Source of the DNA: Pseudomonas cavernicola
GTDB taxonomy: Bacteria > Pseudomonadota > Gammaproteobacteria > Pseudomonadales > Pseudomonadaceae
Reading direction: 5' to 3'
Assembly (NCBI RefSeq): GCF_003596405.1
Contig: NZ_QYUR01000008.1
Location: 62,001-126,000 of the forward strand
Length of the DNA stretch: 64,000 bases
Below are positions 324-30,028 of this stretch, in pieces. The translations under genes and the position numbers were made by a program. Below the pieces are notes generated by a model. That model was not told the DNA's origin, did no database searches, and was given only the letters and a program-made list of their open reading frames with translations. Position 1 is the first letter of the stretch. Each line of letters begins with the position of its first letter.

Positions 324-1748
324 ATGGCGTACATCCAAGGAGAGGCGCGAGACCAGACCAGTCTGTTTCCGGTTTCGCTGGAAGAGTTGATTCCCGACGA
401 CCATCTGGTCCGTGTGATCGATGCCTACGTGGCTCGACTGGACCTCAAGCTACTCGGGTTTGCCAAAGCCACTCCCAAGAGTACGGGGCGTCCTGCCTAC
501 GATCCGGCGGACCTGCTCAAGCTGTACCTGTATGGCTATTTCCACCGCATCCGCTCCTCCCGACGCCTCGAAGCTGAATGCCTGCGCAACGTCGAAGTCA
601 TGTGGTTGCTCAATCGGCTCAAGCCGGACTTCAAGACCATCGCCGATTACCGCAAGGACAACGGACAAGCGTTCAGCGCGACCTGTCGGGCCTTCGTGCA
701 GTTTTGCCGTCAAGCCGGGCTGATCGCCGGAGAGTTGGTGGCCATCGATGGCAGCAAATTCAAGGCCGTGGCCTCAGCGCGTCGGCATGTGGATCTGAAG
801 AAGCTCAAGCGTCAGCAAGAGAAGCTGGATAAGCGTATCGCCCAGTACCTGGCGGAGCTGGATGAGGCGGACAAGTCCGAAGCCAATGAGGCCGTTGACC
901 GTAGTGCGGTAAAAACGGCGCTGGAGCGACTGCAAGCCAAACAGGCCGACAACCTGACTTGCCAAGCACTGATGCAGGCCCTGGAGCTTGAGCAATTCAT
1001 CACCACCGAGAGCGATGCCCGGATGATGCGTACCCCTCGGGGTGGGCGCGTCGCTTACAACGTGCAAACAGCTGTGGACGCCGAGCATTGCCTGATCCTG
1101 CATCACGAGGTCACACAGGACGGCAACGATACCCAGCAGCTCGAGCCGATGGCTAAAGCCGCCCAGTCCGAGTTGCAGCAGGACGTGCTGACGGTCACTG
1201 CCGATGCCGGTTACTCCAACGGCGAGCAGTTCCAGGCATGCGAAGATGCCGGCATTACCGCCTATGTGCCGCCCAACCGGGCAGTTAACAACCGGGGTGG
1301 TGATACGCAGCTGTTCGAGCGAAGTGATTTCACTTACGACGCAGAGAGCGACCAGTACCGCTGTCCGGCAGGCAAGTTGCTGACGCTCAAGCAACTGAAT
1401 CGCGGGGAGCGTATCTACCACGCGGCGATCAGCGACTGCAGCGCTTGCCCGCTCAAGGCACAGTGCACCAACGCCCAGCGTCGCTACCTGAGACGCCATG
1501 CCCACGAGGCGGCCTTTGAGCGAATGGAGCAGCGGCTGCAGGCGCAGCCCGAGATGATGGCGAGTAGGCGATCCATCGTCGAGCATCCATTTGGCAACCT
1601 CAAACAATGGCTATTTGGTAATGGTCGCTTCCTGCTTCGCCAATTGAAGGGAGCACGAACCGAAATGGCCTTAGCGGTACAGGCCTATAACCTCAAAAGA
1701 GCGATCAACGTGCTCGGCGCACGCCACCTCATCGGATTGATGGGCTGA
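324..1748 (+). CDS. IS1182-family transposase (DDE), arm 1 copy
   Basis: A 474-residue transposase of normal length for IS1182. It has an N-terminal DUF772-like part (RPAYDPADLLKLYLYGY), a DDE core with VAIDGSKFKAV near residue 140 and TADAGYSNG near 290, a cysteine-rich segment (CSACPLKAQC), and the C-terminal RRSIVEHPFGNLK motif carrying the last acidic residue. It cuts and joins element ends during transposition. The ATG follows a terminator hairpin with no visible Shine-Dalgarno. This copy is intact; the copies at 18,549 and 19,748 have broken N-termini at the second turn point. Confidence 0.92.
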   Translation: MAYIQGEARDQTSLFPVSLEELIPDDHLVRVIDAYVARLDLKLLGFAKATPKSTGRPAYDPADLLKLYLYGYFHRIRSSRRLEAECLRNVEVMWLLNRLKPDFKTIADYRKDNGQAFSATCRAFVQFCRQAGLIAGELVAIDGSKFKAVASARRHVDLKKLKRQQEKLDKRIAQYLAELDEADKSEANEAVDRSAVKTALERLQAKQADNLTCQALMQALELEQFITTESDARMMRTPRGGRVAYNVQTAVDAEHCLILHHEVTQDGNDTQQLEPMAKAAQSELQQDVLTVTADAGYSNGEQFQACEDAGITAYVPPNRAVNNRGGDTQLFERSDFTYDAESDQYRCPAGKLLTLKQLNRGERIYHAAISDCSACPLKAQCTNAQRRYLRRHAHEAAFERMEQRLQAQPEMMASRRSIVEHPFGNLKQWLFGNGRFLLRQLKGARTEMALAVQAYNLKRAINVLGARHLIGLMG

Positions 1749-1784
1749 TACAGCCTTTTTCTCCCCTGGGTCCGCACACAGCAA

Positions 1785-1813
1785 AACGCCCCGAACCAGT
1801 CGGGGCGTTTGCT
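1785..1813. terminator. terminator near the right end of the IS
   Basis: AACGCCCCG at 1785-1793 and CGGGGCGTT at 1801-1809 form a 9-bp stem with a 7-nt loop, followed by a T-containing stretch, 37 nt after the transposase stop. It ends the transposase transcript inside the element. Confidence 0.75.
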
Positions 1814-1875
1814 TGGTCAACCATTAGTACGTTTTCGCACAGCCTGTTCTGCGGCCTTTTTTGCGTCTGTACGGC

Positions 1876-2730
1876 TTAGGTGTGTAGATGTTCGGCTGCG
1901 TACAGGGTGTTTTCCAGCAGGCAGGCACGCGTCATCGGGCCCACGCCGCCAGGTACCGGGGTAATCCAGCCGGCGCGAGGTAGGGCGGTTTCGTATACCA
2001 CGTCGCCGACCAGTTTGCCGTCTTCCTGGCGGTTGATTCCAACGTCAATAACGATAGCGCCTTCTTTGATCCACTCGCCTTTGACCAGTCCGGGTTTGCC
2101 GGCTGCAACCACGACCAGATCGGCATTGCCTACATGGCCAGCCAGGTCGCGAGTGAAGCGGTGTGTGACCGTTACAGTGCAGCCAGCCAACAGCAACTCC
2201 ATCGCCATCGGTCGGCCAACGATGTTGGAAGCGCCAACGATGACTGCATTCATGCCGTACAGATCGGCGCCGGTACTGGCCAGCAGGGTCATAATGCCTT
2301 TGGGGGTGCAGGGGCGCAGCACTGGGATGCGTTGTGCTAAGCGGCCGATGTTGTAGGGGTGAAAGCCGTCGACATCTTTATCTGGGCGAATGCGCTCCAG
2401 CAGCAGGGAGGCGTCCAGGTGCTCCGGTAGCGGAAGCTGGACCAGGATACCGTCGATGCTGGGGTCTTCATTAAGGCTGTCGATCAGGTCGCGCAGCTCA
2501 GTCTGGCTGGTGCTGGCCGGCAGGTCGTAGGCCCGGGACAGGAAACCAACTTCTTCACAGTCTTTGCGCTTGTGCGAGACATACACCTGAGAGGCGGGGT
2601 CGCTGCCTACCAGGATCACCGCCAGGCCAGGGGTACGAAGGCCCTGTTGGCGACGCTCGGCGACACGTTGGGCGATCTGCTGGCGCAGGCTAGCGGCGAT
2701 CGCTTTGCCGTCGATTAGTTGTGCGGTCAT
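1876..2730 (-). CDS. folD: bifunctional methylenetetrahydrofolate dehydrogenase / cyclohydrolase
   Basis: A 284-residue cytoplasmic enzyme that converts 5,10-methylene-THF to 10-formyl-THF in two steps using NADP. Visible family motifs are [11 protein letters not shown] near residue 50 with the catalytic lysine, the [12 protein letters not shown] substrate-site segment near 120, PCTPKGIM near 140, the nucleotide-binding GASNIVGRP near 165, and [10 protein letters not shown] near the C-terminus. Length is standard. It faces cysS across the IS-split terminator and lies opposite in strand to the tRNAs. Arms 2 and 3 hold copies with the same predicted protein at 17,567-18,421 and 21,219-22,073. 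Confidence 0.97.
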
Positions 2731-2862
2731 GACGCTTGGTTAACCATCGGAAATGATTGAAAAAGGACGCGCATTCTCGCATGACAAGCCGGGCGGGCAA
2801 AGGCGGCTGGTCAGCAATTTCCCGTAACTCCTTTATCTCACTGAATTTTTTACGTTTTAGTG

Positions 2863-2889
2863 TTGACGGCAGTGAAAGCTGACTATAAC
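2863..2889 (+). promoter_or_regulatory. candidate tRNA-cluster promoter
   Basis: TTGACG at 2863-2868 and TATAAC at 2884-2889 are separated by 15 bp, short for sigma-70, although ATAACA one base on would give 16. They lie about 120 bp upstream of tRNA-Arg on the same strand. No other gene starts here on this strand. The hexamers are seen directly; promoter use is inferred. Confidence 0.5.
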
Positions 2890-3007
2890 ATTCGCCCCGC
2901 TTGTCGAGCACAGCCAGACGCTGGGTAAGAAGGCAAGGCGAGTCGATGTTTGGTTCGCTGCAGCCAAAGCTTTAAGTCTGCGCTTCATGCGGAATGCAGA
3001 TGAATAA

Positions 3008-3084
3008 GTGCCCGTAGCTCAGCTGGATAGAGCATCCGCCTTCTAAGCGGATGGTCGCAGGTTCGAGTCCTGCCGGGCACGCCA
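3008..3084 (+). tRNA. tRNA-Arg (anticodon UCU)
   Basis: A 77-nt cloverleaf with acceptor GTGCCCG pairing with CGGGCAC, anticodon stem TCCGC/GCGGA with loop CTTCTAA giving UCU, T-arm GGTTCGAGTCC and an encoded CCA. First of a three-tRNA cluster. Arm 2 and arm 3 copies are at 17,213-17,289 (minus) and 22,351-22,427. Confidence 0.95.
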
Positions 3085-3114
3085 ATAGGCTGTTTGGCAC
3101 AAGTAGCGCAATAT

Positions 3115-3191
3115 GGTGGGCGTAGCTCAGTTGGTAGAGCACAGGATTGTGACTCCTGTTGTCGTGGGTTCGATCCCCATCGTCCACCCCA
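3115..3191 (+). tRNA. tRNA-His (anticodon GUG)
   Basis: Acceptor GTGGGCG pairs with CGTCCAC, a G at 3115 precedes it as the expected extra 5-prime G of tRNA-His, and C73-CCA is encoded. The anticodon stem CAGGA/TCCTG encloses TTGTGAC, giving GUG. Confidence 0.95.
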
Positions 3192-3247
3192 TATTCGAAA
3201 AGACGCCAGACCTCAAAGTCTGGCGTCTTTGCTTCAAAGCCTGTTAC

Positions 3248-3332
3248 GCGGACGTGGTGGAATTGGTAGACACACTGGATTTAGGTTCCAGCGCCGCAAG
3301 GCGTGAGAGTTCGAGTCTCTCCGTCCGCACCA
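3248..3332 (+). tRNA. tRNA-Leu (anticodon UAG), integration target
   Basis: An 85-nt class II tRNA with acceptor GCGGACG/CGTCCGC, a long variable arm, loop TTTAGGT giving UAG, and an encoded CCA. The integrase gene ends only 9 nt downstream, so the 3-prime end of this tRNA is the likely attachment site of the integrative element. I did not find a second copy of the tRNA 3-prime end elsewhere in the window, so the far end of the element is not located. Confidence 0.95.
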
Positions 3333-3341
3333 CCTTATAAA

Positions 3342-4442
3342 TCAAGGGGTTACGAGCTTTAACAGCGCTCCTCCTTGATGCGCTGGAACAGCAGCGTGAA
3401 CTAAACGTGAACTGCCGTGTTCGCGTAGCCCATCCAGTACCCGCACGGCAGCCCTGACCCTGGCCGGCGCCAAATGCGCATACCGCTCGGTCATCATGAT
3501 GGTCGAGTGGCCGAGTAAATCCCTGACCTCCGCCAGCGCCACCCCAGCACTGATTAAGTGCGCCGCGCAGGTATGCCGCAGATCGTGAATCACCAGGTCA
3601 TCGATGTGTGCGGACTTGCAGGCGCTGACAAAACCCTGGCGAATGCTTGCCACCCGATCACCTGTTGCCCTGGCAAATACCCAGGGTGATCCCGGGCAAG
3701 CCTCTGCCCGATATGCCATCCGGCCCTTCAGGGCATCCATAGCCCCGTCATTCAGCGGGATGCTCCGGCGCTTACCGGCCTTGGTGTGCTGTCCTTCCAA
3801 GTAGATCAGGCGATTGACCAGATCCACGCGGCGCCACTCAAGCCCGAGCATTTCCTCCTTCCTGCAGCCGGTGTTGACCGCCAGATGGATAAAGTCCACC
3901 AGCAGCGCGCCATTCCTTTGTTTGCTGGCTACCCGACAGAGCGATTCAACCTCTGCCCGTGTCAGCCAGCGCACCCTGCCTTCCGGCTCACGCATCGTCC
4001 GACCCTTCACGGGGTTGGGTAGGGCCCATTCATACTCGACATTGCACCAGTTAATGGCTGCCGACAGCGCCGCAAGCTCCGGTTGATCGTCGCTGCCGAT
4101 GCGCCTGCCGGCATGGCGCTTTGTCTGTAGGCGCGGATCTGTGGCCATCCAGGCATCATCACCACGCCTGTAAACTGGCGCGCCAATGCTTTAAACCCGA
4201 TGAAGGTGTCTCGTAGCTCGCTTGATGCTGGCTGCGTTGCGCAGCTAGGGGGAGCATCAACCTCTTCGAACTCCGGTGGTGATCACCCCCCCAATCCCTT
4301 CTTTCCTTCAGGCATTCGGCCGCGACTGTTTGCTCTAGCTTTTCCGCTGCGAAGTCGGTAGTTCCAGCAGAGCGTCAGATTCTTTTGCCATCTGATTGTT
4401 TGACAAGATTCCACAGTGGTGAATCGCTCTTTTGTAGGGCAT
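3342..4442 (-). pseudogene. integrase, arm 1 copy, frame-broken by sequence errors
   Basis: The C-terminal part is identical in translation to the integrase at 22,685-23,794. From about 4,030 toward its N-terminus the copy loses and gains single bases and the frame is lost. The same error style continues for 6 kb, so this is taken as poor sequence of one true gene, not as biological decay. Confidence 0.75.
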
Positions 4443-4654
4443 ACGGTACCTCCGTAATTGCCGCCCGCGTTGGAGATTTACGTTTAGCAGCGCCCTCATC
4501 GATCATCTGCTGAAAGCTGGTTGCGTGACGCGAACACCACGTTGCATCAGCCGAACGGAGGGATTCAGGCGGTCACTGACCATTACGGTATTGCAGTGTA
4601 CGGCTGACCGCCGAGCATACCTGCCGCCCTCGCTCAACTGAAATAAGGCTTCAT
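4330..4654 (-). pseudogene. excisionase-like gene, arm 1 degraded copy
   Basis: Degraded duplicate of the 106-residue helix-turn-helix gene at 23,680-24,000. The start region and the segments encoding the helix-turn-helix are recognisable but the frame is broken. See the third-arm copy for the annotation. Confidence 0.6.
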
Positions 4655-5272
4655 GGCAATACCGCGCGCGCGAGTATTGCCCCCGGCGCGCGTGTATGAG
4701 TGGTCTCGGCGCGGCTGCGCAGATGGCGACGATCACGGTGAGCTTGTGCATGACCAGGAATTTCTCCTCTGCGTATCGCACGTCGTCAGCTTCCACGTAA
4801 CGGGAGGCCAGTCGTCTTAATCACCTCATCCAGCCCCCATCAAGCGGCGTCGACCAGGTGCAGCGGCTCGCAAGGCTCCCAGCCGTCCACAACCCTACCC
4901 AGGGTGACGGCTGCGATGTAGGCTCGGGGCGGTCTCCTATTGCCGGCGGCGGAGCCGCGGACGCCTTGTCCATTGCGCTCTGTCGAGGTCGATCAGGGCA
5001 AGGCGCCCCTGATCGCCTGTCCAGCTGGTGCCAGTGCTGGCTACCCTTCCGAGACGTGATCAACTTCAACTAGGCGGGGTCGACTGCCTGGCTGAACGTG
5101 TCGGTTGCTGCGGAGAGTCGCAAGATGAACCAGCCAAGCCGGCTAGAGGGTTAAATTGGCGTTAGGTCTGCAGTCGTGGGACTGGTTGCGGTTTTCATAG
5201 TGCTGCGGATGAACGCCACGGCGTTCGTCGGCATCAATCCTTTCTACGGCGGTGCTGGGACTACATATTTTC
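4651..5272 (-). pseudogene. 205-residue element gene, arm 1 degraded copy
   Basis: Degraded duplicate of the gene at 23,997-24,614. Many single-base indels; the start codon region is altered. The end positions are estimated by alignment to the third arm. Confidence 0.55.
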
Positions 5273-5945
5273 AGTGGGCGCCCGGCGTACCCCTGAGAAA
5301 ACCAAGGGCCGAAAGTTCCTGTACAAAAAGAGACGGAAAAAGCCCGGACAAACCGGCACTAAAATGTGATGTTGCCGCCCTTTCGTTTGGAGGCGGCACC
5401 CGTAATCAATCCTAACGCCCAATTAAGTATTAACCCAAAACTCCTGATTTTTCTGCCGAAATCTGCCTCTGCAGGCCCCGAATTTACTGCTTTCAGCTTG
5501 CGCGAAGTTGTACCAGGCACCTCGTCTGTTTCGGTAGTTTGGCCAACCCGCGCCCGCGAGGACTTGGAAGGGTTGAACCGTGCGCATCTCCTTGTTGTGA
5601 TGCAAGACCATAGCCGCTTGTTTATCAGGAGGCGCTGACCCTCAAGCGCTATTACACTCGCCCGGCTCCAGCCGCTCGCCATGAGACCCACCGACAATCC
5701 ACCACGCCCCGTTGGGCCGCTGTCCACCTCTTCGGGCAGCACCCAATGCTGTCGGGGTGGTTCTTGTGTTTTTTTCGGGGCCAAATCCCACAGAACGCTT
5801 GGGCTTTATGTCATTTGGGTGCAATTGGTCAAGTTGCCGGTTGAGGAGCGTGCATTTGGTGTGCCTTTAGGATCAGGTTTGAGGCGCACCGATGAATCGA
5901 CCCTTTTTTTGTAGACGTTTCTGAAAGCCGAGTCCCGACAAATGT

Positions 5946-6136
5946 CAGCTGTGTGAAAACGTTTTGAGTCAAGCGTTCTGATCAATCAACCAAAATGACA
6001 GACCACCAAAAACCTCTGATCAGAACTCGGTGCTCCTCTCGCGGATTCTATGCAAGCTAGCCGATAACTCTGCAGATTTCGCCGTAGCAACCGCGAAATC
6101 TCCCAGATGTGAGCCGGGAGTTTTTCACACAGCCTG
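5946..6136 (+). repeat. IS1182-type MITE, arm 1 degraded copy
   Basis: Starts CAGCTGTGTGAAAACG and ends TTTTTCACACAGCCTG. It aligns to the 159-bp MITE at 25,257-25,415 but is inflated to about 190 bp by insertions, as is usual in this arm. Confidence 0.6.
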
Positions 6137-6324
6137 GGGTTTCGCAAGCAGTACCTTGCACGACTGCAGCAACGACCAATCAGATCAATGTTTCAATTCG
6201 AGTGCGTGTGCATCCACCTGTGAGCGGGGCGAAACAACGGTTCAGCCCAAAACCCGAAGCAGGCCCTGCAGGAATGGGCCTGAACACGAGCAAAAATTCC
6301 AGTTATAAAACTAATCAGGCACCC

Positions 6325-6712
6325 CACTTTATGTAACCACAGTGAATTTCCGGCGGAACTCGAACGACCTCGCAGACCCCCGTGTGCCCAGCCGGAATCG
6401 AGACGCAATCTGTCTGCGCTCATCCTCGAATCGCTCGCCGGTGTCATGTAATTGCAGATACGCCCCTCGAATCAGCACGAAGGCTTCGTCGTTGTCGAAG
6501 CGCAGTTCGAACTTCGCAAGGTTGCGACGTGAAAGAACGCCACGCTTTTACGGGGTCTCACGCCGACGGTGCAGTAGAAAGCTCATGCGTGGTGTCGGGA
6601 TTACCTTCGATCACATCATCACCCAGCGGGTAGGCAAGCCAGCATCGGGGTAATTCAGAGCGATGCCAGCCAGAATCGATCGGCTTGGGCAGTTGGGAGC
6701 GTAGGCAGTCAT
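6325..6712 (-). pseudogene. cupin gene, arm 1 degraded copy
   Basis: Degraded duplicate of the 131-residue cupin at 25,579-25,974. Stretches such as the one encoding the C-terminal half are readable but several indels break the frame. The copy at 13,669 is intact. Confidence 0.6.
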
Positions 6713-6817
6713 CCTTCCCGGAGCCTCGTTATCGGAAGAGGTGGAATGAACGGCTATGACAAGTGGCAAAGTCGAGGCTGAGGCTACACCAAAATATGAC
6801 AGGTGGCATATGTTACG

Positions 6818-7432
6818 ATGAGCACTGTCTACCCGTGACCGAATGATCGCCGGGCCGCGGATCTTCTTCGCGTAAAGGCATGACAGCGACCAGCATTGCG
6901 TGAGGTCGTTGCGTTACTCGTACACCCCGCGCGTTCGATGCGCACCACTTCCGGCGCAAAGCGTCAGCTACTCGAAGCTGCCTCTACCACGCGCGAGAAG
7001 TTAGCGACCGCTGGCGCAGCTTACTGGCAAAGCATGGTCCGAGTGAAAGGCTTGAGATGTTTTCGTTGCCTTGTGGCCGAAAGATCCTTGAAGAGACAGC
7101 CTTCCAGGCCGGTGGGTGCGTGCTGGCCGTAAGCGTTAGCAAAGACGCTTCGACCAGCGCGGGCGAGTCGGAGACCGAGCTGCGAAGCCAGATCCAGCTG
7201 CAGCCTGCCTTGGACCAGGCCCAACGGCATCTTTGTGCAATGCAGGAAATCATCTCAGTCATTCGCTACAGGAAGCAGGTCGTAGCGACATCCGCTCTCG
7301 CAGCTTTGCACTGCTGGCCGAGTTGCTTCCATCGCAGGTCTGTTCGCCCGGCAGAGCCGCCGCAGTGTGGAGCCGCTCGACCTGATCTGGCAGGAATTGC
7401 AAACGGAGTTTTTGAACGGAGTTACCTAGACC
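6818..7432 (+). pseudogene. TetR regulator 1, arm 1 degraded copy
   Basis: Degraded duplicate of the TetR gene at 26,077-26,688. The start ATGAGCAC and the upstream operator-like repeat are recognisable, but the frame is broken repeatedly. Confidence 0.6.
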
Positions 7433-8019
7433 GAGTTTCCACTAGTTCCAGCTGGCGCAGGCCATCGCTCGGTCACTGCGTCGATGTAGCTTCGGATCGC
7501 CGTAGATTACGAGCCCAGCAGGATAGCCCCTCGAAGTCCCTCGACTCAGTTGCCTCCCATCGTTGCGCCTCCTCCGGCTGATTACCCGCGCTATAGAGCT
7601 TTGGCGAAAACCCGGCAGTCATCATCCAGAAGGCCGCCGGATCGGCTCCATAAGCTCCACTTGCCTAGGTGCGATCGACCGTCGACACGGGCACCCATCA
7701 GGCAAGCCAAATCGAGTCTCCTGGAAGAGCTTCTTGGCTTTGCCCCATGCTTGTGATCGCTCATGCCGGAGCCAGTCTTCATCCGAAGGCGATGGAGAAC
7801 AGCCGACTGTTTCAACCGCTCATGCGTCCCATGTCCAGCCCACGTCCCTCAGGGACGATTCCCTTGTTGGGTAGTGATGGCTAGAAGGACGCCTTTGTTA
7901 GCCCGCAAGGCGGATTGACAAAGCGCATTCCATGGTGTGCCGGGTAGCCGAGGACGCTTGAAGGATATTGGCGCAACGCTTGCAAAGCCTCCAATCGCGT
8001 TGGATTTATCAGTGGGCAC
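7430..8019 (-). pseudogene. TetR regulator 2, arm 1 degraded copy
   Basis: Degraded duplicate of the TetR gene at 26,685-27,260. It lies convergent to the preceding copy exactly as in the third arm, but with broken frames throughout. Confidence 0.6.
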
Positions 8020-8201
8020 GGGCTACTCCTGCTCTAAATCATGCAGATTGACTTCTATGTCATAAGCCTTGGCGTTCTCCACTTTGACCCGGTTACCGAA
8101 TGTTTTGCTTGAGTCTGGGCAAACCAACATTCGGTAAGTAATTGAAGGATTGCTTGGAAAAACCAGGCAGCACCCTTCATAAAGGCAAGGAGAGTCTCCC
8201 T

Positions 8202-9136: not shown

Positions 9137-9153
9137 CGTGATAAGCAGGGGCA

Positions 9154-11390: not shown

Positions 11391-11411
11391 CTCTTGCCCC
11401 TGCCTTATCAG

Positions 11412-16956: not shown

Positions 16957-16965
16957 TTTATAAGG

Positions 16966-21189: not shown

Positions 21190-21218
21190 TTCTGCGGCCT
21201 TTTTTGCGTCTGTACGGC

Positions 21219-22073: not shown

Positions 22074-22350
22074 GACGCTTGGTTAACCATCGGAAATGAT
22101 TGAAAAAGGACGCGCATTCTCGCATGACAAGCCGGGCGGGCAAAGGCGGCTGGTCAGCAATTTCCCGTAACTCCTTTATCTCACTGAATTTTTTACGTTT
22201 TAGTGTTGACGGCAGTGAAAGCTGACTATAACATTCGCCCCGCTTGTCGAGCACAGCCAGACGCTGGGTAAGAAGGCAAGGCGAGTCGATGTTTGGTTCG
22301 CTGCAGCCAAAGCTTTAAGTCTGCGCTTCATGCGGAATGCAGATGAATAA

Positions 22351-22427
22351 GTGCCCGTAGCTCAGCTGGATAGAGCATCCGCCTTCTAAGCGGATGGTCG
22401 CAGGTTCGAGTCCTGCCGGGCACGCCA
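22351..22427 (+). tRNA. tRNA-Arg (UCU), arm 3 duplicate
   Basis: Exact duplicate of 3008-3084 at the constant 19,343-base offset. Confidence 0.85.
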
Positions 22428-22457
22428 ATAGGCTGTTTGGCACAAGTAGCGCAATAT

Positions 22458-22534
22458 GGTGGGCGTAGCTCAGTTGGTAGAGCACAGGATTGTGACTCCT
22501 GTTGTCGTGGGTTCGATCCCCATCGTCCACCCCA
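22458..22534 (+). tRNA. tRNA-His (GUG), arm 3 duplicate
   Basis: Exact duplicate of 3115-3191 at the constant offset. Confidence 0.85.
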
Positions 22535-22590
22535 TATTCGAAAAGACGCCAGACCTCAAAGTCTGGCGTCTTTGCTTCAAAGCCTGTTAC

Positions 22591-22675
22591 GCGGACGTGG
22601 TGGAATTGGTAGACACACTGGATTTAGGTTCCAGCGCCGCAAGGCGTGAGAGTTCGAGTCTCTCCGTCCGCACCA
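22591..22675 (+). tRNA. tRNA-Leu (UAG), arm 3 duplicate
   Basis: Exact duplicate of 3248-3332. The intact integrase gene ends 9 nt downstream on the other strand. Confidence 0.85.
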
Positions 22676-22684
22676 CCTTATAAA

Positions 22685-23794
22685 TCAAGGGGTTACGAGC
22701 TTTAACAGCGCTCCTCCTTGATGCGCTGGAACAGCAGCGTGAACTAAACGTGAACTGCCGTGTTCGCGTAGCCCATCCAGTACCCGCACGGCAGCCCTGA
22801 CCCTGGCCGGCGCCAAATGCGCATACCGCTCGGTCATCATGATGGTCGAGTGGCCGAGTAAATCCCTGACCTCCGCCAGCGCCACCCCAGCACTGATTAA
22901 GTGCGCCGCGCAGGTATGCCGCAGATCGTGAATCACCAGGTCATCGATGTGTGCGGACTTGCAGGCGCTGACAAAACCCTGGCGAATGCTTGCCACCCGA
23001 TCACCTGTTGCCCTGGCAAATACCCAGGGTGATCCCGGGCAAGCCTCTGCCCGATATGCCATCCGGCCCTTCAGGGCATCCATAGCCCCGTCATTCAGCG
23101 GGATGCTCCGGCGCTTACCGGCCTTGGTGTGCTGTCCTTCCAAGTAGATCAGGCGATTGACCAGATCCACGCGGCGCCACTCAAGCCCGAGCATTTCCTC
23201 CTTCCTGCAGCCGGTGTTGACCGCCAGATGGATAAAGTCCACCAGCAGCGCGCCATTCCTTTGTTTGCTGGCTACCCGACAGAGCGATTCAACCTCTGCC
23301 CGTGTCAGCCAGCGCACCCTGCCTTCCGGCTCACGCATCGTCCGACCCTTCACGGGGTTGGGTAGGGCCCATTCATACTCGACATTGCACCAGTTAATGG
23401 CTGCCGACAGCGCCGCAAGCTCCCGGTTGATCGTCGCTGCCGATGCGCCTGCCGCATGGCGCTTTGTCGTGTAGGCGCGGATCTGTGGGCCATCCAGGGC
23501 ATTCATCACCACGCCTGTAAACTGGGCGCGCAATGCTTTAACCCGATGAGTTGTGGTCTCGTAGCTGCGCTGATGCTGGCTGGCGTTGCGCAGGTAGGGG
23601 AGCATCACCTCTTCGAAGCTCCGGGGTGGATTCACCCCCCATTCCTTTTCCTTCCAGGCATCGGCCCGCGACTGTTGCTCTAGGGCTTTTGCCGCTGCGA
23701 AGTCGGTAGTTCCAGCAGAGCGTCGAGTTCTTTTGCCATCTGATTGTTTGACAAAGATCCACCAGTAGGGTGAATCCGCTCTTTTGTAGGGCAT
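22685..23794 (-). CDS. tyrosine-recombinase integrase of the tRNA-Leu element
   Basis: A 369-residue site-specific recombinase that would insert and excise the element at tRNA-Leu. The N-terminal arm-binding part (MPYKRADSPYWW) leads to a SAM-like core-binding domain at about 55-140 and the catalytic domain at 160-330. The active-site set is complete: Arg197 (TGCRKEE), Lys224, His289/Arg292 (HDLRH), His315 (LLGH) and Tyr324 (TERYAHL). The ATG at 23,794 has GGAGG seven bases upstream. Its 3-prime end lies 9 nt from tRNA-Leu, and the excisionase-like gene overlaps its start by 115 nt. This is the only intact copy of three. Confidence 0.93.
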   Translation of the reverse strand: MPYKRADSPYWWIFVKQSDGKRTRRSAGTTDFAAAKALEQQSRADAWKEKEWGVNPPRSFEEVMLPYLRNASQHQRSYETTTHRVKALRAQFTGVVMNALDGPQIRAYTTKRHAAGASAATINRELAALSAAINWCNVEYEWALPNPVKGRTMREPEGRVRWLTRAEVESLCRVASKQRNGALLVDFIHLAVNTGCRKEEMLGLEWRRVDLVNRLIYLEGQHTKAGKRRSIPLNDGAMDALKGRMAYRAEACPGSPWVFARATGDRVASIRQGFVSACKSAHIDDLVIHDLRHTCAAHLISAGVALAEVRDLLGHSTIMMTERYAHLAPARVRAAVRVLDGLREHGSSRLVHAAVPAHQGGALLKLVTP

Positions 23795-24000
23795 ACGGGT
23801 ACCTCCGTAATGCCGCCCGCGTTGGAGATACTAGCAGCGGCGGCCTCATCGATCATCTGCTGAAGCTGTTCTGCGTGGACGCGAACACCACGTTTCATCA
23901 GCCGAACGGATGGGATCAGGCGGTCACTGACCATGCGGTATGCAGTGGTACGGCTGACGCCGAGCATACCTGCCGCCTGCTCAACTGAAATAAGGCTCAT
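23680..24000 (-). CDS. excisionase / AlpA-like helix-turn-helix protein
   Basis: 106 residues. The first 50 form a MerR/AlpA-type helix-turn-helix (SVEQAAGMLGVSRTTAYRMV then RVHAEQLQQMI), typical of small directionality factors beside integrases. The C-terminal 45 residues are read from DNA that also encodes the integrase N-terminus in another frame, an unusually long 115-nt overlap. Two arms agree on this reading, so it is not a single-read error. The start overlaps the stop of the upstream 205-residue gene in ATGA, implying translational coupling. The DNA-binding role is well supported; excision is inferred from context. Confidence 0.75.
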   Translation of the reverse strand: MSLISVEQAAGMLGVSRTTAYRMVSDRLIPSVRLMKRGVRVHAEQLQQMIDEAAAASISNAGGITEVPVCPTKERIHPTGGSLSNNQMAKELDALLELPTSQRQKP

Positions 24001-24614
24001 GGCAATACCTCGCGGCCGCGAGTATTGCCGGCGGCGCGAGTATGAGTGGTCTCGTCGGCGCTGCGGCAGATGGCGACGATCACGGTGAGCTTGTGCATGA
24101 CCAGGAATTTCTCGCTCTGCGTATCGCCGTCGTCAGCTTCCACGTAACGGGAGGCCATCGTCTTAATCACCTCATCCAGCCCCACAAGCGCGTCGACCAG
24201 GTGCAGCGGCTCGCAAGGCTCCCAGCGCGTCCACAACCCTACCAGGGTGACCGGCTGCGAGTAGCGCGGGCGGTCTCCTATGCCGGCGGGCGGGAGCGCT
24301 GACGCCTTGTCCATGCGCTCTGTCGAGGTCGTCAGGGCAAGCGCCCTGATCGCCTTGTCCAGCTGGTGCCAGTGCTGGCTACCCTTACCATGACGTGAAT
24401 CCAACTCAACTAGCGGGCGGTCGACTGCCCTGGCTGAGACGTGTCGGTTGCTGGGAGAGTCGCAAGGGATGAACCAGCCAAGCCGGTAGAGGGTAAATGG
24501 CGTTAGGTCTCGGTGGGACTGGTTGCGGGTTTCAGCAGTGCTGCGGATGAACGCCAGGCGTTCGTCGGCAGTCATCCTTTCCACGGCGGTGCTGGGACGA
24601 TACTTATTTTTCAT
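23997..24614 (-). CDS. 205-residue hypothetical protein of the integrative element
   Basis: I do not recognise the family. The protein is soluble in appearance, with no signal peptide or membrane segment. The middle has GSQHWHQLDKAIRAL near residue 80 and a hydrophobic helix (KFLVMHKLTVIVAICRS) near 170. It heads a tight three-gene run with the excisionase-like gene (4-nt overlap) and the integrase, which suggests a role in control or mobility of the element. The start ATG at 24,614 precedes AAAAAT; a one-base change in that A run breaks the copy at 15,029. Confidence 0.55.
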   Translation of the reverse strand: MKNKYRPSTAVERMTADERLAFIRSTAETRNQSHRDLTPFTLYRLGWFIPCDSPSNRHVSARAVDRPLVELDSRHGKGSQHWHQLDKAIRALALTTSTERMDKASALPPAGIGDRPRYSQPVTLVGLWTRWEPCEPLHLVDALVGLDEVIKTMASRYVEADDGDTQSEKFLVMHKLTVIVAICRSADETTHTRAAGNTRGREVLP

Positions 24615-24756
24615 TGGGCGCCCTGGTCGTACCCCTGAAAACCAAGGGCCGAAGTTCCTGGTACAAAAGAGAGGAAAAAGGCCCGGACAACCCGGGCACT
24701 AAATGTGAGTGCCGCCCTTTCGTTTGGGGCGGTCACCCGTAATCAATCCTAACGAT

Positions 24757-24915
24757 TTAAGTATTAACCAACTCCTGATTTTCTGCCGAAATCTGCTCTG
24801 CAGGCCCCGGAATTACTGGCTTTTCAGCTTGCGCGAAGTTGTACCAGGCACCTCGTTGTTCGGTATGTTTGGCCAACCTCGCCGCGATGACTTGGAATGG
24901 TTGAACCGTGCGCAT
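24757..24915 (-). CDS. 52-residue hypothetical protein
   Basis: A short frame running from ATG at 24,915 with an AAGGAG site five bases upstream, to TAA at 24,757. The product is hydrophilic, with an N-terminal helix (MRTVQPFQVIAARLAKH) and a Pro/Gly-rich tail. The same 52 residues are encoded in arm 2. No family recognised. It follows the GroES-like fragment on the same strand, so the two may be one transcript. Confidence 0.5.
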   Translation of the reverse strand: MRTVQPFQVIAARLAKHTEQRGAWYNFAQAEKPVIPGPAEQISAENQELVNT

Positions 24916-24954
24916 CTCCTTGTTGGTGATGCAAGACCATAGGCCGCTTGTTTA

Positions 24955-25129
24955 TCAGGAGGCGCTGACCTCAAGCGCATACACCTCGCCCGTGCCCAGC
25001 CGCGGCCAGAACCCACCGCAATCACCACGCCCCGGTTGGGCCGCTCGGCCACCTCTTCGGGCAGCACAATGCTGTCGGTGGTCTTGGTTTTTTCGGGGCA
25101 AATCCACAGACCTCTTGGGCTTTTGTCAT
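24955..25129 (-). pseudogene. GroES-like short gene, frameshifted
   Basis: One frame encodes TDSIVLPEEVAERPNRGVVIAVG and a second encodes PRLGTGEVYALEVSAS before a TGA. Together they resemble the core of a GroES co-chaperonin barrel (IVLPE..EKPQRG.VVAVG). The ATG at 25,129 is in a third frame. The region is 175 nt in both arm 2 and arm 3, so at least two shifts are shared. Either it is a real remnant or both arms share the same base-calling faults. It is too short for a full GroES. Confidence 0.45.
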
Positions 25130-25169
25130 TGGGTGCAATTTGGGTCTAGTTGAGGGTTGGTTGAGGAGC

Positions 25170-25209
25170 GTGATGGTGTGCCTTTTAGGATCGGTTTGAG
25201 CGCACCGAT
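25170..25209 (+). repeat. 40-bp dispersed repeat, copy A
   Basis: Begins GTGATGGTGTGCCTTTTAG and ends GCGCACCGAT. It matches 54,250-54,289 at 34 of 40 positions by eye. The two copies lie near the integrase end of the element and just before the serine recombinase, so they may be shared ends of a mobile unit. Confidence 0.5.
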
Positions 25210-25256
25210 GAATCGACCCTTTTTTTGTAGACGTTTCTGAACGTCCGCAAAGGGTC

Positions 25257-25415
25257 CAGGCTGTGTGAAAACGTTTTGAGTGCCAAGCGCTGATCAATCA
25301 ATGATCAAATTCGGTGCTCTCTCGCGGATTCTATGCAAGCTAGCTCGGATAACTTCTGCAGATTTCGCGTAGCAACGCGAACCTCAGATTTGAGCGGGAG
25401 TTTTCACACAGCCTG
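25257..25415 (+). repeat. IS1182-type MITE with 4-bp duplication
   Basis: 159 bp with perfect 16-bp terminal inverted repeats CAGGCTGTGTGAAAAC, no coding capacity, and GGTC directly on both sides. The ends differ from those of the IS1182-family element at only one or two of 16 bases, so that transposase probably moves it. An apparently identical 159-bp copy is at 42,412-42,570. Confidence 0.8.
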
Positions 25416-25578
25416 GGTCGCAAGCAGACCTTCACGACCGGCAGCTAACGACCCAATCAATCAATTTTCAATTCGAGTTGGGTGCATCCACCTGTGAGCG
25501 GGGGCGAACAACGGTTCAGGCCAAAACCCGAAGCAGGCCTGCAGATGGCCTGAACACGATGCAAAAATCCATGTGGAA

Positions 25579-25974
25579 CTAATCAGCAACCCCACTGGTA
25601 ACCACAGTGAATTTCCGGCTGAACTCGAAGACCTCGCAGACCCCCGTGTGCCCAGCCGGAATCGAGACGGCATCGCCTGCGCTCATCTCGAATCGCTCGC
25701 CGGTGTCCATGGTAATTGCGATACGCCCCTCGATCAGCACGAAGGCTTCGTCGTTGTCGAAGCGCCAGTCGAACTTCGAAGGTTGCGACGTGAAGAACGC
25801 CACGGCTTTGTACGGGGTCTTCACGCCGACGGTGCGTAGAAGCTTCATGCGGGTGTCGGGATTACCTTCGATCACATCATCACCCAGCGGGTAGGCAAGC
25901 CAGCCATCGGGGGTATTCAGCGATGCCAGGGCGACAGAATCGATCGGGTTGGGCAGTTGGGAGCGAGCAGTCAT
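25579..25974 (-). CDS. small cupin protein (EutQ/DUF861-like)
   Basis: A 131-residue single cupin barrel with FDNDEAFVLIEGRIAI as motif 1 and GDAVSIPAGHTGVCEV as motif 2. The usual second metal His of motif 1 is not obvious, so metal binding is uncertain. Such proteins act as small isomerases, lyases or ligand sensors. It diverges from TetR regulator 1 across a region with two operator-like repeats, so it is probably controlled by that regulator. No signal peptide. A role in the neighbouring catabolic cluster is inferred from position only. Confidence 0.75.
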   Translation of the reverse strand: MTARSQLPNPIDSVALASLNTPDGWLAYPLGDDVIEGNPDTRMKLLRTVGVKTPYKAVAFFTSQPSKFDWRFDNDEAFVLIEGRIAITMDTGERFEMSAGDAVSIPAGHTGVCEVFEFSRKFTVVTSGVAD

Positions 25975-26011
25975 CTTCGGAGCCTCGTATCGGAAGAGGT
26001 GGATGAACGGC

Positions 26012-26067
26012 TATGACAAGTGGCATAGTCGAGGCTGAGGCTACACCAAAATATGACAGGTGGCATA
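26012..26067. promoter_or_regulatory. paired palindromic operators between cupin and TetR 1
   Basis: TATGACAAGTGGCATA at 26,012-26,027 and TATGACAGGTGGCATA at 26,052-26,067 differ at one base. Each is an imperfect palindrome of ATGNCA and TGNCAT half-sites, the form bound by TetR dimers. They sit between the divergent cupin and TetR starts, 40 bp apart (close to four helix turns). Binding by TetR regulator 1 is inferred. Confidence 0.65.
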
Positions 26068-26076
26068 ATTTTTACG

Positions 26077-26688
26077 ATGAGCACTTCTACTCGTGACCGA
26101 ATGATCGCCGGGGCCGCGGATCTTCTTCGCCGTAAGGGCATGACAGCGACCAGCATGCGTGAGGTCGTGCGTTACTCGAACACCCCGCGCGGTTCGATTG
26201 CGCACCACTTTCCCGGCGGCAAGCGTCAGCTACTCGAAGCTGCCGTCGACCACGCGGGCCGAGAAGTTAGCGAGCCGCTGGCGCAGCTACTGGGCAAGCA
26301 TGGTCCGGTGAAAGGCTTGGAGATGTTCGTTGCCTTGTGGCGAAAAATCCTTGAAGAGACAGCCTTCCAGGCCGGTTGTGCGGTGCTGGCCGTAGCGGTT
26401 GAGCAGTACGCTTCCGACCAGCGCGGCGAGTCGGAGACCGAGCTGGAAGCGCAGATCCAGCTGCAGCTGCTGGACCAGGCCAACGGCATCTTTGTGCAAT
26501 GGCAGGAAATCATCAGTCATTCGCTACAGGAAGCGGGCGTAGCGGACATCCGCTCTCGCAGCTTGGCACTGCTGGCGATTGCTTCCATCGAGGGTTCTGT
26601 CGCGCTGTGCAGAGCCGCTCGCAGTGTGGAGCCGCTCGACCTGATCTGGCAGGAATTGCAACGGAGTTTTGAGCGGGAGTTGACCTAG
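26077..26688 (+). CDS. TetR-family regulator 1
   Basis: 203 residues from the ATG at 26,077. The upstream in-frame ATG at 26,053 is not preferred because it lies inside an operator repeat. The N-terminal helix-turn-helix covers about residues 10-55 (AADLLRRKGMTATSMREVV, then GSIAHHFPGGKRQLL). The C-terminal ligand domain is of the LmrA/YxaF type seen in many Pseudomonas repressors. It probably represses itself and the divergent cupin. Its stop overlaps that of the convergent TetR 2 by four bases (CTAG). Confidence 0.88.
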   Translation: MSTSTRDRMIAGAADLLRRKGMTATSMREVVRYSNTPRGSIAHHFPGGKRQLLEAAVDHAGREVSEPLAQLLGKHGPVKGLEMFVALWRKILEETAFQAGCAVLAVAVEQYASDQRGESETELEAQIQLQLLDQANGIFVQWQEIISHSLQEAGVADIRSRSLALLAIASIEGSVALCRAARSVEPLDLIWQELQRSFERELT

Positions 26689-27260
26689 ACGCGAGTTCCC
26701 ACTAGTTCCAGCTGGCGCAGGCCACGCTCGGTCACTGCGTCTATGTAGCTCGGATCGCCGTAGATACGAGCCAGCAGGATAGCCCCCTCGAAGTCCGCGA
26801 CCAGTTGCCTCGCCAGTCGTTGCGCCTCCTCCTGGCTGTACCCGGCGCTATAGAGCTTGGCGAACGCGGCAGTCCAGTCATCCAGGAAGCGCCGGATCGG
26901 CTCCATAAGCTCCACCTTGCCATAGGTGGCGTCGACCGCGACGACGCCCATCAGGCAGCCAATCGAGTCGTCCTGGAAGAGCTTCTTGGCTTTGCGCCCC
27001 ATGCTTGTGAGTCGCTCATGCGGAGCCAGGTCTTCATCGAAGGCGATGGAGAACAGCGACTGTTTCAACCGCTCATGCGTCCAGTCCAGCACGTCCCGCA
27101 GGAGCGATTCCTTGTTGGGGTAGTGATGGTAGAAGGACGCCTTGGTTAGCCCGCAGGCGGATGACAACGCATCCATGGTGGTGCCGTGGTAGCCGAGGCG
27201 CTTGAAGGTATTGGCGCAACGCTGCAGAAGCTCATCGCGTGGGATTTTCAGTGGGCGCAC
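26685..27260 (-). CDS. TetR-family regulator 2
   Basis: 191 residues starting at GTG (27,258-27,260) with AGGAG seven bases upstream. The helix-turn-helix is at about 10-55 (FKRLGYHGTTMDALSSACGL, then SFYHHYPNKESLL), followed by a C-terminal ligand-binding domain. It is divergent from the crotonase/acyl-CoA dehydrogenase operon, with a long inverted-repeat operator in between. The likely role is repression of the catabolic operon until a CoA-ester or free-acid inducer is present. The inducer cannot be read from sequence. Confidence 0.88.
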   Translation of the reverse strand: MRPLKIPRDELLQRCANTFKRLGYHGTTMDALSSACGLTKASFYHHYPNKESLLRDVLDWTHERLKQSLFSIAFDEDLAPHERLTSMGRKAKKLFQDDSIGCLMGVVAVDATYGKVELMEPIRRFLDDWTAAFAKLYSAGYSQEEAQRLARQLVADFEGAILLARIYGDPSYIDAVTERGLRQLELVGTRV

Positions 27261-27328
27261 GGGCTACTCCTGCTCTAAATCATGCAGATTGATTCTATGT
27301 CATAAGCCTTGGCGTCTCAATTTGACGG

Positions 27329-27372
27329 TTACCGAATGTTTGTTTAGTTTTTGCAAACCGAACATTCGGTAA
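27329..27372. promoter_or_regulatory. inverted-repeat operator of the catabolic operon
   Basis: TTACCGAATGTT at 27,329-27,340 and AACATTCGGTAA at 27,361-27,372 are perfect 12-bp arms with a 20-bp AT-rich spacer. They lie between divergent TetR 2 and the enoyl-CoA hydratase gene, 61 bp before the latter's ATG. ACCGAATGTT-type arms are common among TetR repressors of acyl-CoA pathways. TetR 2 is the obvious candidate ligand. Confidence 0.75.
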
Positions 27373-27433
27373 GTAATTAAGGATTGCTTGGAAAACCAGG
27401 CAGCACCCTTTCATAAAGCCAGGAGAGTCTCCC

Positions 27434-28231
27434 ATGAGCGAAGCAAACAGCGGTCCGGGTCGCGTCACCCGAGAGCAGCGTGGTCATCTGTTCCTTATCG
27501 GCCTCGACCGGGCCGGCAAACGTAATGCTTTCGACAGCGCCATGCTGACCGACCTGGCCCTGGCCTTGGGCGAGTACGAGCGCAACGATGAGATGCGCTG
27601 CGCCGTCGTGTTCGCCCACGGCGAGCATTTCACAGCTGGCCTCGATCTGATGGAGCTGACGCCGAAGCTGGCTTCGGGTGGCTTCAAGTATCCGGATGAA
27701 GGCATCGATCCGTGGGGCGTATCGAAACCGCGCCGCGCTAAGCCGGTAGTGCTCGCCGTGCAAGGCACCTGCTGGACCGCCGGGATCGAGCTGGTGCTCA
27801 ACGCCGACATCGCCATCGCCGCCAGTAACACCCGCTTCGCTCACCTGGAAGTGCTGCGCGGCATTCCGCCGTCCGGTGGCTCCACCGTGCGCTTTACCCA
27901 GGCCGCAGGTTGGACCAACGCCATGCGCTACATGCTGACCGGCGAAGAGTTCGGTGCTGACGAGGCTCTGGCTATGCGTTTGCTGACCGAGGTCGTTGAG
28001 CCTGGCCAAGAGCTGGCGCGCGCCATCGAGTACGCCGAGCGCATCGCCAAAGCCGCTCCTCTGGCCATCAAGGCCACCCTGCAGTCTGCCTTCCAGGCGC
28101 GCGACGAGGGCGACGATGCTGCGCTCTCCAAACTCAACGAACTGCTGTTCACGCTGATCAAGAGCGAAGACCTGCGTGAAGGCGTCATGGCGATGATGCA
28201 GAAGCGTGAACCGGTGTTCAAAGGTCGTTAA
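27434..28231 (+). CDS. enoyl-CoA hydratase/isomerase (crotonase family)
   Basis: 265 residues, standard crotonase length. The fold is marked by KRNAFDSAML near residue 30, the oxyanion-hole segment HFTAGLDLMELTPK near 65, and VLAVQGTCWTAGIELVLNADIAIA near 105 with the second oxyanion Gly. At the usual catalytic positions the glutamates are not both clear, so hydratase versus isomerase activity is open. It starts at ATG after AGGAGAG and opens an operon with the acyl-CoA dehydrogenase 21 nt downstream. Cytoplasmic. Works on CoA esters made by the ligase at 30,041. Confidence 0.88.
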   Translation: MSEANSGPGRVTREQRGHLFLIGLDRAGKRNAFDSAMLTDLALALGEYERNDEMRCAVVFAHGEHFTAGLDLMELTPKLASGGFKYPDEGIDPWGVSKPRRAKPVVLAVQGTCWTAGIELVLNADIAIAASNTRFAHLEVLRGIPPSGGSTVRFTQAAGWTNAMRYMLTGEEFGADEALAMRLLTEVVEPGQELARAIEYAERIAKAAPLAIKATLQSAFQARDEGDDAALSKLNELLFTLIKSEDLREGVMAMMQKREPVFKGR

Positions 28232-28252
28232 CTGATAAGGCAGGGGCAAGAG

Positions 28253-30028
28253 ATGCTGCAGTACCAAGCTCCACTGGAGGAGTTCAACTTCCTCGCTCAC
28301 AAGGTTCTTCGACTTTCAGAGCTGTTGCCTCTGCTGCCAGAGCACCACCATATCGACGCCGACCTGTTCAGGGCCACTCTGGAGGTCGGTGCCGAACTCA
28401 CCCAAGAGCAGCTGCTGCCCCTGAACGGCAGTGGTGATGCCGAGGGTTGCAGGCTTGAACATGGCGGAGTCATAACCCCACAGGGCTTCAAGTCAGCTTA
28501 CCGTCTGTTCTACGAGAACGGCTGGCCGGCCCTGACAGTCCCGCTGTCCATTGGGGGGCAAGGCTTCCCAGGAGCGGCAGGCGTCTTCTTTGACGAGATG
28601 CTCGCTTCCACCAACCTGTCTTTCAGCATTTTCGCCAACGTGCGCGAAGGTGTGCTTCGTTGCGTCGACCGCTTCGGCGATGAGCGGGTTCGATCCCTCT
28701 TCTCTGACAAACTAGCCAGTGGCGAATGGTTAGGCACCATGTGCCTTACCGAGCCGCAGGCCGGCAGCGATCTTGGCCTGATTCGCACGACTGCAGTGAC
28801 GCAGTCGGACGGCTCCTACCTCCTCAGTGGAACCAAGATATTCATCTCGAACGGCGACCACGATCTGACCGAGAACATCGTTCACCTGGTTCTCGCCAGA
28901 ACGGAAGGGGCTCCGGCAGGTACTGGCGGCCTCAGCCTATTCGTCGTGCCGAAGTACCAAGGGGATGCTCCTGCCTCGCCCAACGGGGTGTCGGTCATCG
29001 CGCTTGAGCACAAACATGGCATTCGTGCCAACGCCACATGCGCCCTGGCATTCGAGAATGCCAGGGGTTACCGCGTCGGTGAATTGAACCGCGGCCTTGC
29101 CTGCATGTTCCTGCTGATGAACAGTGCGCGGCTCGCCGTGGGTGTGCAAACCGTAGGCCTGGCCGAGGTCGCTTACCAGAACGCGCTGCGCTACACCCAG
29201 GAGCGTTTTCAAGGCCGTGCACTGAACGGGGCCACGCACCCCGATCAACCCGCCGACCCTCTGTTAAGTCATATTGGCGTCAAGTCGAGCCTCGTTCAGC
29301 AGCGGCTGTTTATCGAGCCAGCACGCTTGCTCTGCGCCTGGGTCGGCAGCCTGCTCGATGAGGCGCGTTGCCACCCGGACGACACGTGGCGCAAGCAGGC
29401 ATCGCAACTGGCGGAACTGCTGACTCCCATCGTCAAGGGCTATCTGTCTCATCACGCGGGCACTCACATCGCCTCGGCGCTTCAGCTATTCGGCGGGCAT
29501 GGCTACATAGTCGAAACCGGCATGGAGCAACTGCTGCGCGATGCGGCCATCTGTTCGATCTATGAAGGCACGAACTACATCCAGTCTCTGGACTTGCTAG
29601 GGCGCAAGACCCTGGGTGATCAGGGGCAGCGCTTGGGGATCTTCCTCAGCCACATTCCCGTGCTGGCCGAGCGTCTGCGCCAGCGTCCAGGGCTGGAAGG
29701 TGTCGCCACGACCCTGGCTTCATGGGCGGCCGAGTTCGAACCATTGGTTCAGCAAGTCTCGGTCGACACGGTTTTTAACCGGGACGCTGTGGGCTTGGTT
29801 GCGCCGGACTTTCTTGAACTGCTGGGCACCGTAGTCTTTGGCTACCTGTGGGCTTGGATCGCGGACGCCGCCGTGCCATCAGCTTCTGGAGAAGAGTTCC
29901 CTAGAAGCAAACCTGCTCTGGCCCAGCTGTATTTCTCAGAAGCAGAAGTCCGTGTTCCGTCACTTATCGAGAAGTTGAAGCGCAGTGCATCGCGCCTTGA
30001 GCAACTCGAACAGATCCAACTCTGCTAA
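28253..30028 (+). CDS. acyl-CoA dehydrogenase, long DmdC-like form
   Basis: 591 residues, the length of the long acyl-CoA dehydrogenase group that includes DmdC, not the 380-residue short-chain type. FAD-binding motif TEPQAGSDLG is near residue 167, then ISNGDHD near 200. The C-terminal region has ALQLFGGHGYI and the loop YEGTNYIQSLDLLGRK near 437, which carries the catalytic Glu in this group. It oxidises an acyl-CoA to the 2-enoyl-CoA and passes electrons to ETF. The start ATG follows GGGGCAAGAG. Only this copy is complete; arms 1 and 2 hold broken 5-prime parts. Confidence 0.92.
   Translation: MLQYQAPLEEFNFLAHKVLRLSELLPLLPEHHHIDADLFRATLEVGAELTQEQLLPLNGSGDAEGCRLEHGGVITPQGFKSAYRLFYENGWPALTVPLSIGGQGFPGAAGVFFDEMLASTNLSFSIFANVREGVLRCVDRFGDERVRSLFSDKLASGEWLGTMCLTEPQAGSDLGLIRTTAVTQSDGSYLLSGTKIFISNGDHDLTENIVHLVLARTEGAPAGTGGLSLFVVPKYQGDAPASPNGVSVIALEHKHGIRANATCALAFENARGYRVGELNRGLACMFLLMNSARLAVGVQTVGLAEVAYQNALRYTQERFQGRALNGATHPDQPADPLLSHIGVKSSLVQQRLFIEPARLLCAWVGSLLDEARCHPDDTWRKQASQLAELLTPIVKGYLSHHAGTHIASALQLFGGHGYIVETGMEQLLRDAAICSIYEGTNYIQSLDLLGRKTLGDQGQRLGIFLSHIPVLAERLRQRPGLEGVATTLASWAAEFEPLVQQVSVDTVFNRDAVGLVAPDFLELLGTVVFGYLWAWIADAAVPSASGEEFPRSKPALAQLYFSEAEVRVPSLIEKLKRSASRLEQLEQIQLC

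What the first reader, a model, noticed from the sequence alone, without database searches (positions are those of the whole stretch)
324..30028. A single locus read three times as a fold-back palindrome: assembly artifact
IS element, folD, three tRNAs, integrase, excisionase, cupin, two TetR genes, crotonase and the start of the acyl-CoA dehydrogenase occur in forward, reverse and forward order. Arm 3 is offset from arm 1 by exactly 19,343 bases over the error-free part, and arm 2 mirrors arm 1 around a fixed sum of 20,297. Intact reading frames exist for most genes in only one arm. This is what a missed hairpin in a long read, or an amplification chimera, would produce. It inflates the gene count by about 20 kb.
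Basis: partly seen in the sequence, partly recalled or inferred. Interest (0 to 1): 0.75.

Follow-up and report, generated by a model that had tools for sequence, protein, structure and literature searches.

The report
Fold-back chimera in genome assembly
The triplicated forward-reverse-forward stretch is not a real feature of this Pseudomonas-like genome: it is most likely one locus read three times from a folded-back sequencing molecule, and the same assembly holds several more such errors.

Summary
One locus (IS1182-family element, folD, tRNA-Arg-His-Leu, integrase ... start of an acyl-CoA dehydrogenase gene) appears forward, reverse, forward. About 7 kb around the first turn is uncorrected: arm 1 departs from arm 3 by 9.5% insertions, 4.2% deletions and 1.6% mismatches, the profile of a raw PacBio-CLR-type read. 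Errors on the two sides of that turn are nearly independent (6 shared, of 110 and 100), so they are reading errors, not mutations. Clean parts of arms 2 and 3 differ by indels only. Each of 35 other same-genus genomes has one such locus. Decisive: about half of the assembly was scanned, and it holds three more three-arm sets (two on C8, one on C6) and palindromes at one end or more of the other seven contigs. At all eight interior turns the strands join 73-257 bp apart with 0-3 unassigned bases, leaving no room for a 45-base adapter. That favours an adapter-less chimeric molecule over a missed SMRTbell adapter. The four sets add about 83 kb of false sequence, 19.35 kb of it here. Raw reads could not be seen. 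A real inverted triplication is very unlikely.

The parts
326..10205 (+). Arm 1; clean to 4078, raw-read-like from 4079. Its left flank is the native one.
10206..19676 (-). Arm 2, inverted copy; noisy to about 11,075, then nearly identical to arm 3 up to about 19,546.
19680..29388 (+). Arm 3; noisy only in its first ~65 bases. Its right flank is the native one.
10205..10206 (.). Turn 1: joins window-equivalent 29226 (+) to 29388 (-), offset 162 bp, no unassigned base, no adapter-like score.
19676..19680 (.). Turn 2, inside the IS: joins window-equivalent 583 (-) to 326 (+), offset 257 bp, 3 unassigned bases, no adapter-like score.
4079..11075 (.). Uncorrected stretch around turn 1.
   Evidence: errors nearly independent on the two sides
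19546..19745 (.). Short deletion-rich stretch around turn 2.
246..1846 (+). Complete IS1182-family element (1601 bp) with a 4-bp repeat TTCT on both sides, inserted in a terminator-like inverted repeat between cysS and folD.
   Evidence: flanking repeats read by eye
1876..2730 (-). folD; further copies at 17567-18421 (+) and 21219-22073 (-).
3008..3332 (+). tRNA-Arg, tRNA-His, tRNA-Leu; copies at 22351-22675 (+, all three) and 17106-17289 (-, His and Arg only).
22685..23794 (-). Tyrosine-recombinase integrase; intact frame only in arm 3.
28253..30028 (+). Acyl-CoA dehydrogenase gene; turn 1 falls inside the copies of its 5' part, the gene is whole only in arm 3.

Best explanation
One chromosomal locus was read three times from a chimeric DNA molecule that folded back twice, and the assembler threaded that read into contig C8. 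With an odd number of passes the read enters on the left and leaves on the right, so the contig is not broken; a molecule folded once would instead leave a palindromic contig end, as seen on the other contigs (this odd/even rule is inference). Ordinary reads polished the copies where they could be placed; the stretch around turn 1 kept raw single-read sequence. The molecule most likely arose by an adapter-less strand switch or snap-back of the kind known from phi29 whole-genome amplification. Shown here: the geometry, the noise, the lack of an adapter and the recurrence. Inferred: PacBio CLR as platform, single-read support, and amplification or end-repair snap-back as the cause.
For: Noise of 9.5% insertions, 4.2% deletions and 1.6% mismatches over 5985 bp of arm 3. 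Errors of the two arms near turn 1 nearly independent: 110 and 100, 6 shared. Arm 2 (11,600-19,600) and arm 3 differ by 0 mismatches and 15 inserted or deleted bases, 3 of them at the alignment edge. Three more three-arm sets with insertion-rich noise at their first turn: C8:794665-832702, C8:944744-973046, C6:1186326-1216068. Contig-end palindromes on C1, C2, C3, C4, C5, C6 and, with 175-bp arms only, C7. 8 of 8 interior turns: 0-3 unassigned bases, offsets 73-257 bp in size. One such locus in each of 35 other same-genus genomes, and folD, tRNAs and integrase collinear in G003. Literature: 406 of 475 MDA chimeras were inverted joins (PMC1855051, passages); WGA molecules can carry several turns (PMC6218980, background section).
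Against: No reads, coverage or library record could be seen, and nothing shows that this DNA was amplified. Arms of about 9.3-12.6 kb and three passes would also suit SMRTbell inserts with missed adapters. The 6 shared errors exceed the shifted-control mean of 1.9, though not its maximum of 8. The direction of the offset is not constant (plus at 5 of 8 turns, minus at 3). Short complementary bases at the joins, expected for amplification chimeras, were not tested. PMC12870357 saw no systemic fold-backs in three PacBio data sets, none of them CLR genomic reads as far as the results section tells.
Confidence: 0.85

Rival explanations
1. Missed SMRTbell adapters: one circular template was read in three passes (+, -, +) and not split; the turns are the two ends of an insert of about 9.5 kb. 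Also an artefact.
For: PacBio-like noise; arm lengths of about 9.3-12.6 kb in four sets; PMC6218980 names missed or missing SMRTbell adapters as a source of palindromic reads, in a control set where 0.5% of reads were flagged.
Against: No adapter-like score at the window's turns; 0-3 unassigned bases at 8 of 8 interior turns; the two strands do not end at the same place but 73-257 bp apart.
Confidence: 0.11
2. A real inverted triplication in the cells (tandem inversion duplication or ODIRA-like), in all or in a minority of chromosomes.
For: The order of copies and the offset joins are what such events give (PMC4689423, passages; the bacterial case of Kugelberg 2010 is recalled, seen only as a reference).
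Against: Raw-read accuracy at the first turn, no substitution between the clean copies, four sets plus contig-end palindromes on seven contigs in one assembly, one locus in each of 35 relatives.
Confidence: 0.03
3. A misassembly or rearrangement through inverted copies of the IS, without any chimeric molecule.
For: Turn 2 lies inside the IS, which has ten long matches in the genome, three of them the arms.
Against: Turn 2 joins the IS to its own other strand 257 bp away, not to another locus, and turn 1 lies in an acyl-CoA dehydrogenase gene; a search with the neighbouring 4 kb (22700-26700) finds only the three arms as long matches.
Confidence: 0.01

Closest known systems
Inverted chimeras of phi29 multiple displacement amplification / WGA palindromes in PacBio reads (PMC1855051, PMC6218980)
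   Same: Strand switch to the opposite strand a short way off, no adapter, one or several turns in one molecule.
   Different: Not known whether this DNA was amplified; complementary bases at the joins not tested.
Missed SMRTbell adapter in PacBio reads (named in PMC6218980)
   Same: Passes alternate in strand; PacBio-like noise; arm lengths suit an insert.
   Different: No adapter at the turns, and the strands end 73-257 bp apart.
Fold-back reads in long-read data (PMC12870357)
   Same: Read maps to one place on both strands, often with little or no sequence between (fewer than half of flagged reads had more than 11 bp).
   Different: That study reports them mainly for nanopore libraries, and here the reads have entered an assembly.
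Inverted triplications: ODIRA (PMC4689423), tandem inversion duplication (recalled)
   Same: Three copies with the middle one inverted.
   Different: Those are real DNA at full accuracy; here the first turn has raw-read noise and the structure recurs across the assembly.

Membership tests
Fold-back artefact read in an assembly | Copies of one place in alternating orientation | tested here: met
Fold-back artefact read in an assembly | Turn supported by one or very few reads | not testable with these tools
   No reads; raw-like error rate around turn 1 agrees with it
Fold-back artefact read in an assembly | Same structure at unrelated places of the same assembly | tested here: met
   Three more three-arm sets and palindromic ends on seven contigs
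Amplification (MDA-type) chimera | Inverted join with an offset between the joined points | tested here: met
   8 of 8 interior turns, 73-257 bp
Amplification (MDA-type) chimera | Short complementary bases at the join | not tested
   Raw noise at the joins makes it uncertain; no call
Amplification (MDA-type) chimera | DNA was amplified before sequencing | not testable with these tools
   No library record
Missed SMRTbell adapter | Adapter sequence at the turn | tested here: not met
   Scores 18-24 at 10 centres against a background 99% point of 32; adapter letters recalled
Missed SMRTbell adapter | Both strands end at the same insert end | tested here: not met
   Offsets 73-257 bp at 8 of 8 interior turns
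In-vivo inverted triplication (TID/ODIRA) | Three copies, middle one inverted | tested here: met
In-vivo inverted triplication (TID/ODIRA) | All copies are real DNA with ordinary consensus accuracy | tested here: not met
   About 15% error in arm 1 from 4079; read depth itself not testable
In-vivo inverted triplication (TID/ODIRA) | Short interrupted inverted repeats in the parent sequence at the joins | not tested
   no call

The most novel reading that the evidence does not exclude
The fold-back molecules were already present in the cells: this strain makes inverted triplications of roughly 10-kb segments at many loci in a minority of its chromosomes, and the assembler picked up four of them.
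Probability: 0.02. Interest if true: 0.6.

Novelty: not a real feature. Interest (0 to 1): 0.1.

Why it matters
The extra gene copies and broken frames here should not be counted as gene content, pseudogenes or real duplications. The same check flags three more places and palindromic ends on seven contigs of this assembly, about 83 kb of false sequence in the four interior sets (from the coordinates). A scan for local inverted repeats together with an indel-rich noise check finds such errors from sequence alone.

Tried and rejected
Adapter residue at the turns: nothing above background. A link between turn 2 and an altered IS copy on C6 (L017) that breaks near the same IS position: its pieces are 98.6-100% identical to the IS and it looks like a separate internal rearrangement, so it was set aside without proof. 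Recombination between inverted IS copies: rejected. A stop-free-run scan for other noisy stretches flagged many windows, the noisy ones among them, and was too unspecific to use. A tRNA-like pattern searched in the window gave 0 matches and told nothing; the repeat finder on two short pieces gave nothing, and the att repeat was found by script instead. Seven paper searches were made; searches listed nothing. Kugelberg 2010 is not held and was seen only in a reference list.

Full report
WHAT IS THERE. The window is G000:C8:62001-126000 of an 8-contig, 5,626,424-base assembly. Among 21 loci of named genomes found with the integrase, the best are P. graminis, P. putida and P. entomophila at 80-82% identity; the window's own genome may be left out of that search. 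So the host is most likely a Pseudomonas. One locus appears three times: arm 1 (326-10205, +), arm 2 (10206-19676, -) and arm 3 (19680-29388, +). The offset of 19,343 and the mirror sum of 20,297 are right on the clean part.

NOISE. Compared with arm 3, arm 1 has its first departure at 4079; over 5985 bp it shows 96 mismatches, 571 insertions and 249 deletions. Before that, from 401 to 3900, no difference is listed. Arm 2 is noisy from the turn to 11,075; from 11,600 to 19,600 it differs by 0 mismatches, 7 inserted and 8 deleted bases, 3 of the insertions at the alignment edge. Insertion-rich errors with few mismatches are what raw PacBio continuous long reads show (general knowledge). Over 645 bp near turn 1, arm 1 has 110 and arm 2 has 100 departures from arm 3; 6 are the same, against a mean of 1.9 and a maximum of 8 in 199 shifted controls. 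The two sides are therefore nearly independent readings, not two copies of one mutated sequence; the small excess may reflect shared context.

WHICH FLANKS ARE NATIVE. In arm 1 the IS1182-family element is complete: 246-1846, 1601 bp. It is flanked by TTCT on both sides, and the six other copies aligned with it also have 4-bp repeats (7 of 7, read by eye). It sits in a terminator-like inverted repeat between cysS (TIGR00435, 574.9 bits, cut-off 340) and folD. So the left flank belongs to arm 1. The right flank continues arm 3 without a break.

RELATIVES. One search covered 57 genomes, G000 included. Each of the 35 other same-genus genomes has one match of about 1.4 kb or longer to folD plus tRNAs, while G000 has three; the list is cut at its weak end, after tRNA-size matches. 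In G003 folD, tRNAs and integrase match in one collinear piece of 2607 bp. The 21 other genomes are of the same order and match in shorter pieces.

THE TURNS. An alignment that lets each turn choose its own cut puts turn 1 at 10205/10206, joining strands 162 bp apart with no base unassigned. Turn 2 is at 19676/19680, inside the IS, joining strands 257 bp apart with 3 bases unassigned. The SMRTbell adapter (letters recalled) scores 18-24 at 10 centres of fold-backs in this assembly, against a background median of 22, a 99% point of 32, and 90 for the adapter with itself.

THE SAME ERROR ELSEWHERE. Searched for local inverted repeats: C4-C8 whole, C1 (5,000 of its 69,669 bases read N), C3 except 9,515 bases, and 20 kb at each end of C2, about 2.7 of 5.6 Mb. 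Besides the window there are three three-arm sets: C8:794665-832702 (arms about 12.6 kb), C8:944744-973046 (about 9.3 kb) and C6:1186326-1216068 (about 9.8 kb). Their noise is insertion-rich and lies around turn 1. Palindromes occupy the right ends of C1, C2 and (175-bp arms) C7, the left ends of C3, C5 and C6, and nearly all of C4. The six further interior turns have 0-1 unassigned bases and offsets of 131, 220, -222, 73, -117 and -92 bp; the sign is not constant. Extra length from these coordinates: 19,354, 25,434, 18,838 and 19,835 bp, together 83,461.

MECHANISM. A molecule that switches strand twice gives three passes and lets a contig run through; one that switches once ends it in a palindrome. 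Both forms are present; the rule itself is inference. Multiple displacement amplification gives mostly inverted joins (406 of 475; PMC1855051, passages), and WGA molecules can have several turns (PMC6218980, abstract, background section and passages). PMC12870357 (abstract, background, results) describes fold-back reads often without sequence between the arms, but saw no systemic fold-backs in its three PacBio sets. [quoted passage not shown] A missed adapter explains the three passes and the arm lengths but not the lack of an adapter or the strand offsets. A real inverted triplication (PMC4689423, passages) explains the order but not the noise or the recurrence.

LIMITS. No reads, coverage or library record. 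Single-read support is inferred from error rate. The interior of C2 was not scanned. Joins were not tested for short complementary bases.

VERDICT.

Noticed in passing
G000 C8:794665-832702, C8:944744-973046, C6:1186326-1216068: Three more forward-reverse-forward sets with raw-read noise at the first turn, as in the window.
   Followed up: yes
G000 ends of C1 (right), C2 (right), C3 (left), C5 (left), C6 (left), C7 (right), and C4 as a whole: Palindromes at contig ends; arms of about 3.9 to 7.9 kb, 175 bp only on C7.
   Followed up: partly
G000 C1/C3 right ends, C6/C8 left ends, C2 left and right ends: Contig ends overlap each other (10.9 kb at 99.8%, 3.8 kb at 99.6%, and 1367 bp at 100% between the two ends of C2), so fold-backs may have broken the assembly at these places.
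   Followed up: partly
window 22621-22675 to G000 C8:167869-167923: A 55-bp repeat of the tRNA-Leu 3' end bounds an island of 83,248 bp next to the integrase; a second integrase gene follows the far repeat (L069:2098-3384). G003 has a 59-bp repeat 39,710 bp apart at the same tRNA gene.
   Followed up: partly
window 246-1846 and loci L011-L016: IS1182-family element with 4-bp flanking repeats in 7 of 7 copies aligned; several lie in terminator-like inverted repeats, judged by eye.
   Followed up: partly
L017:2524-3892: Another copy of the IS with an internal deletion and inversion near the IS position where turn 2 lies.
   Followed up: partly
window 14190-14390, 25253-25453, 42408-42608: A dispersed repeat of about 200 bp, with further copies on C2, C6 and C8.
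   Followed up: no
window 8700-8999: A burst of 109 inserted bases in 300 bases of arm 1, far above the rest of the noisy stretch.
   Followed up: no
window 42771-44429: AAA ATPase with an OLD-family TOPRIM domain on the island, possibly a phage-defence nuclease; no NCBIfam cut-off reached.
   Followed up: no
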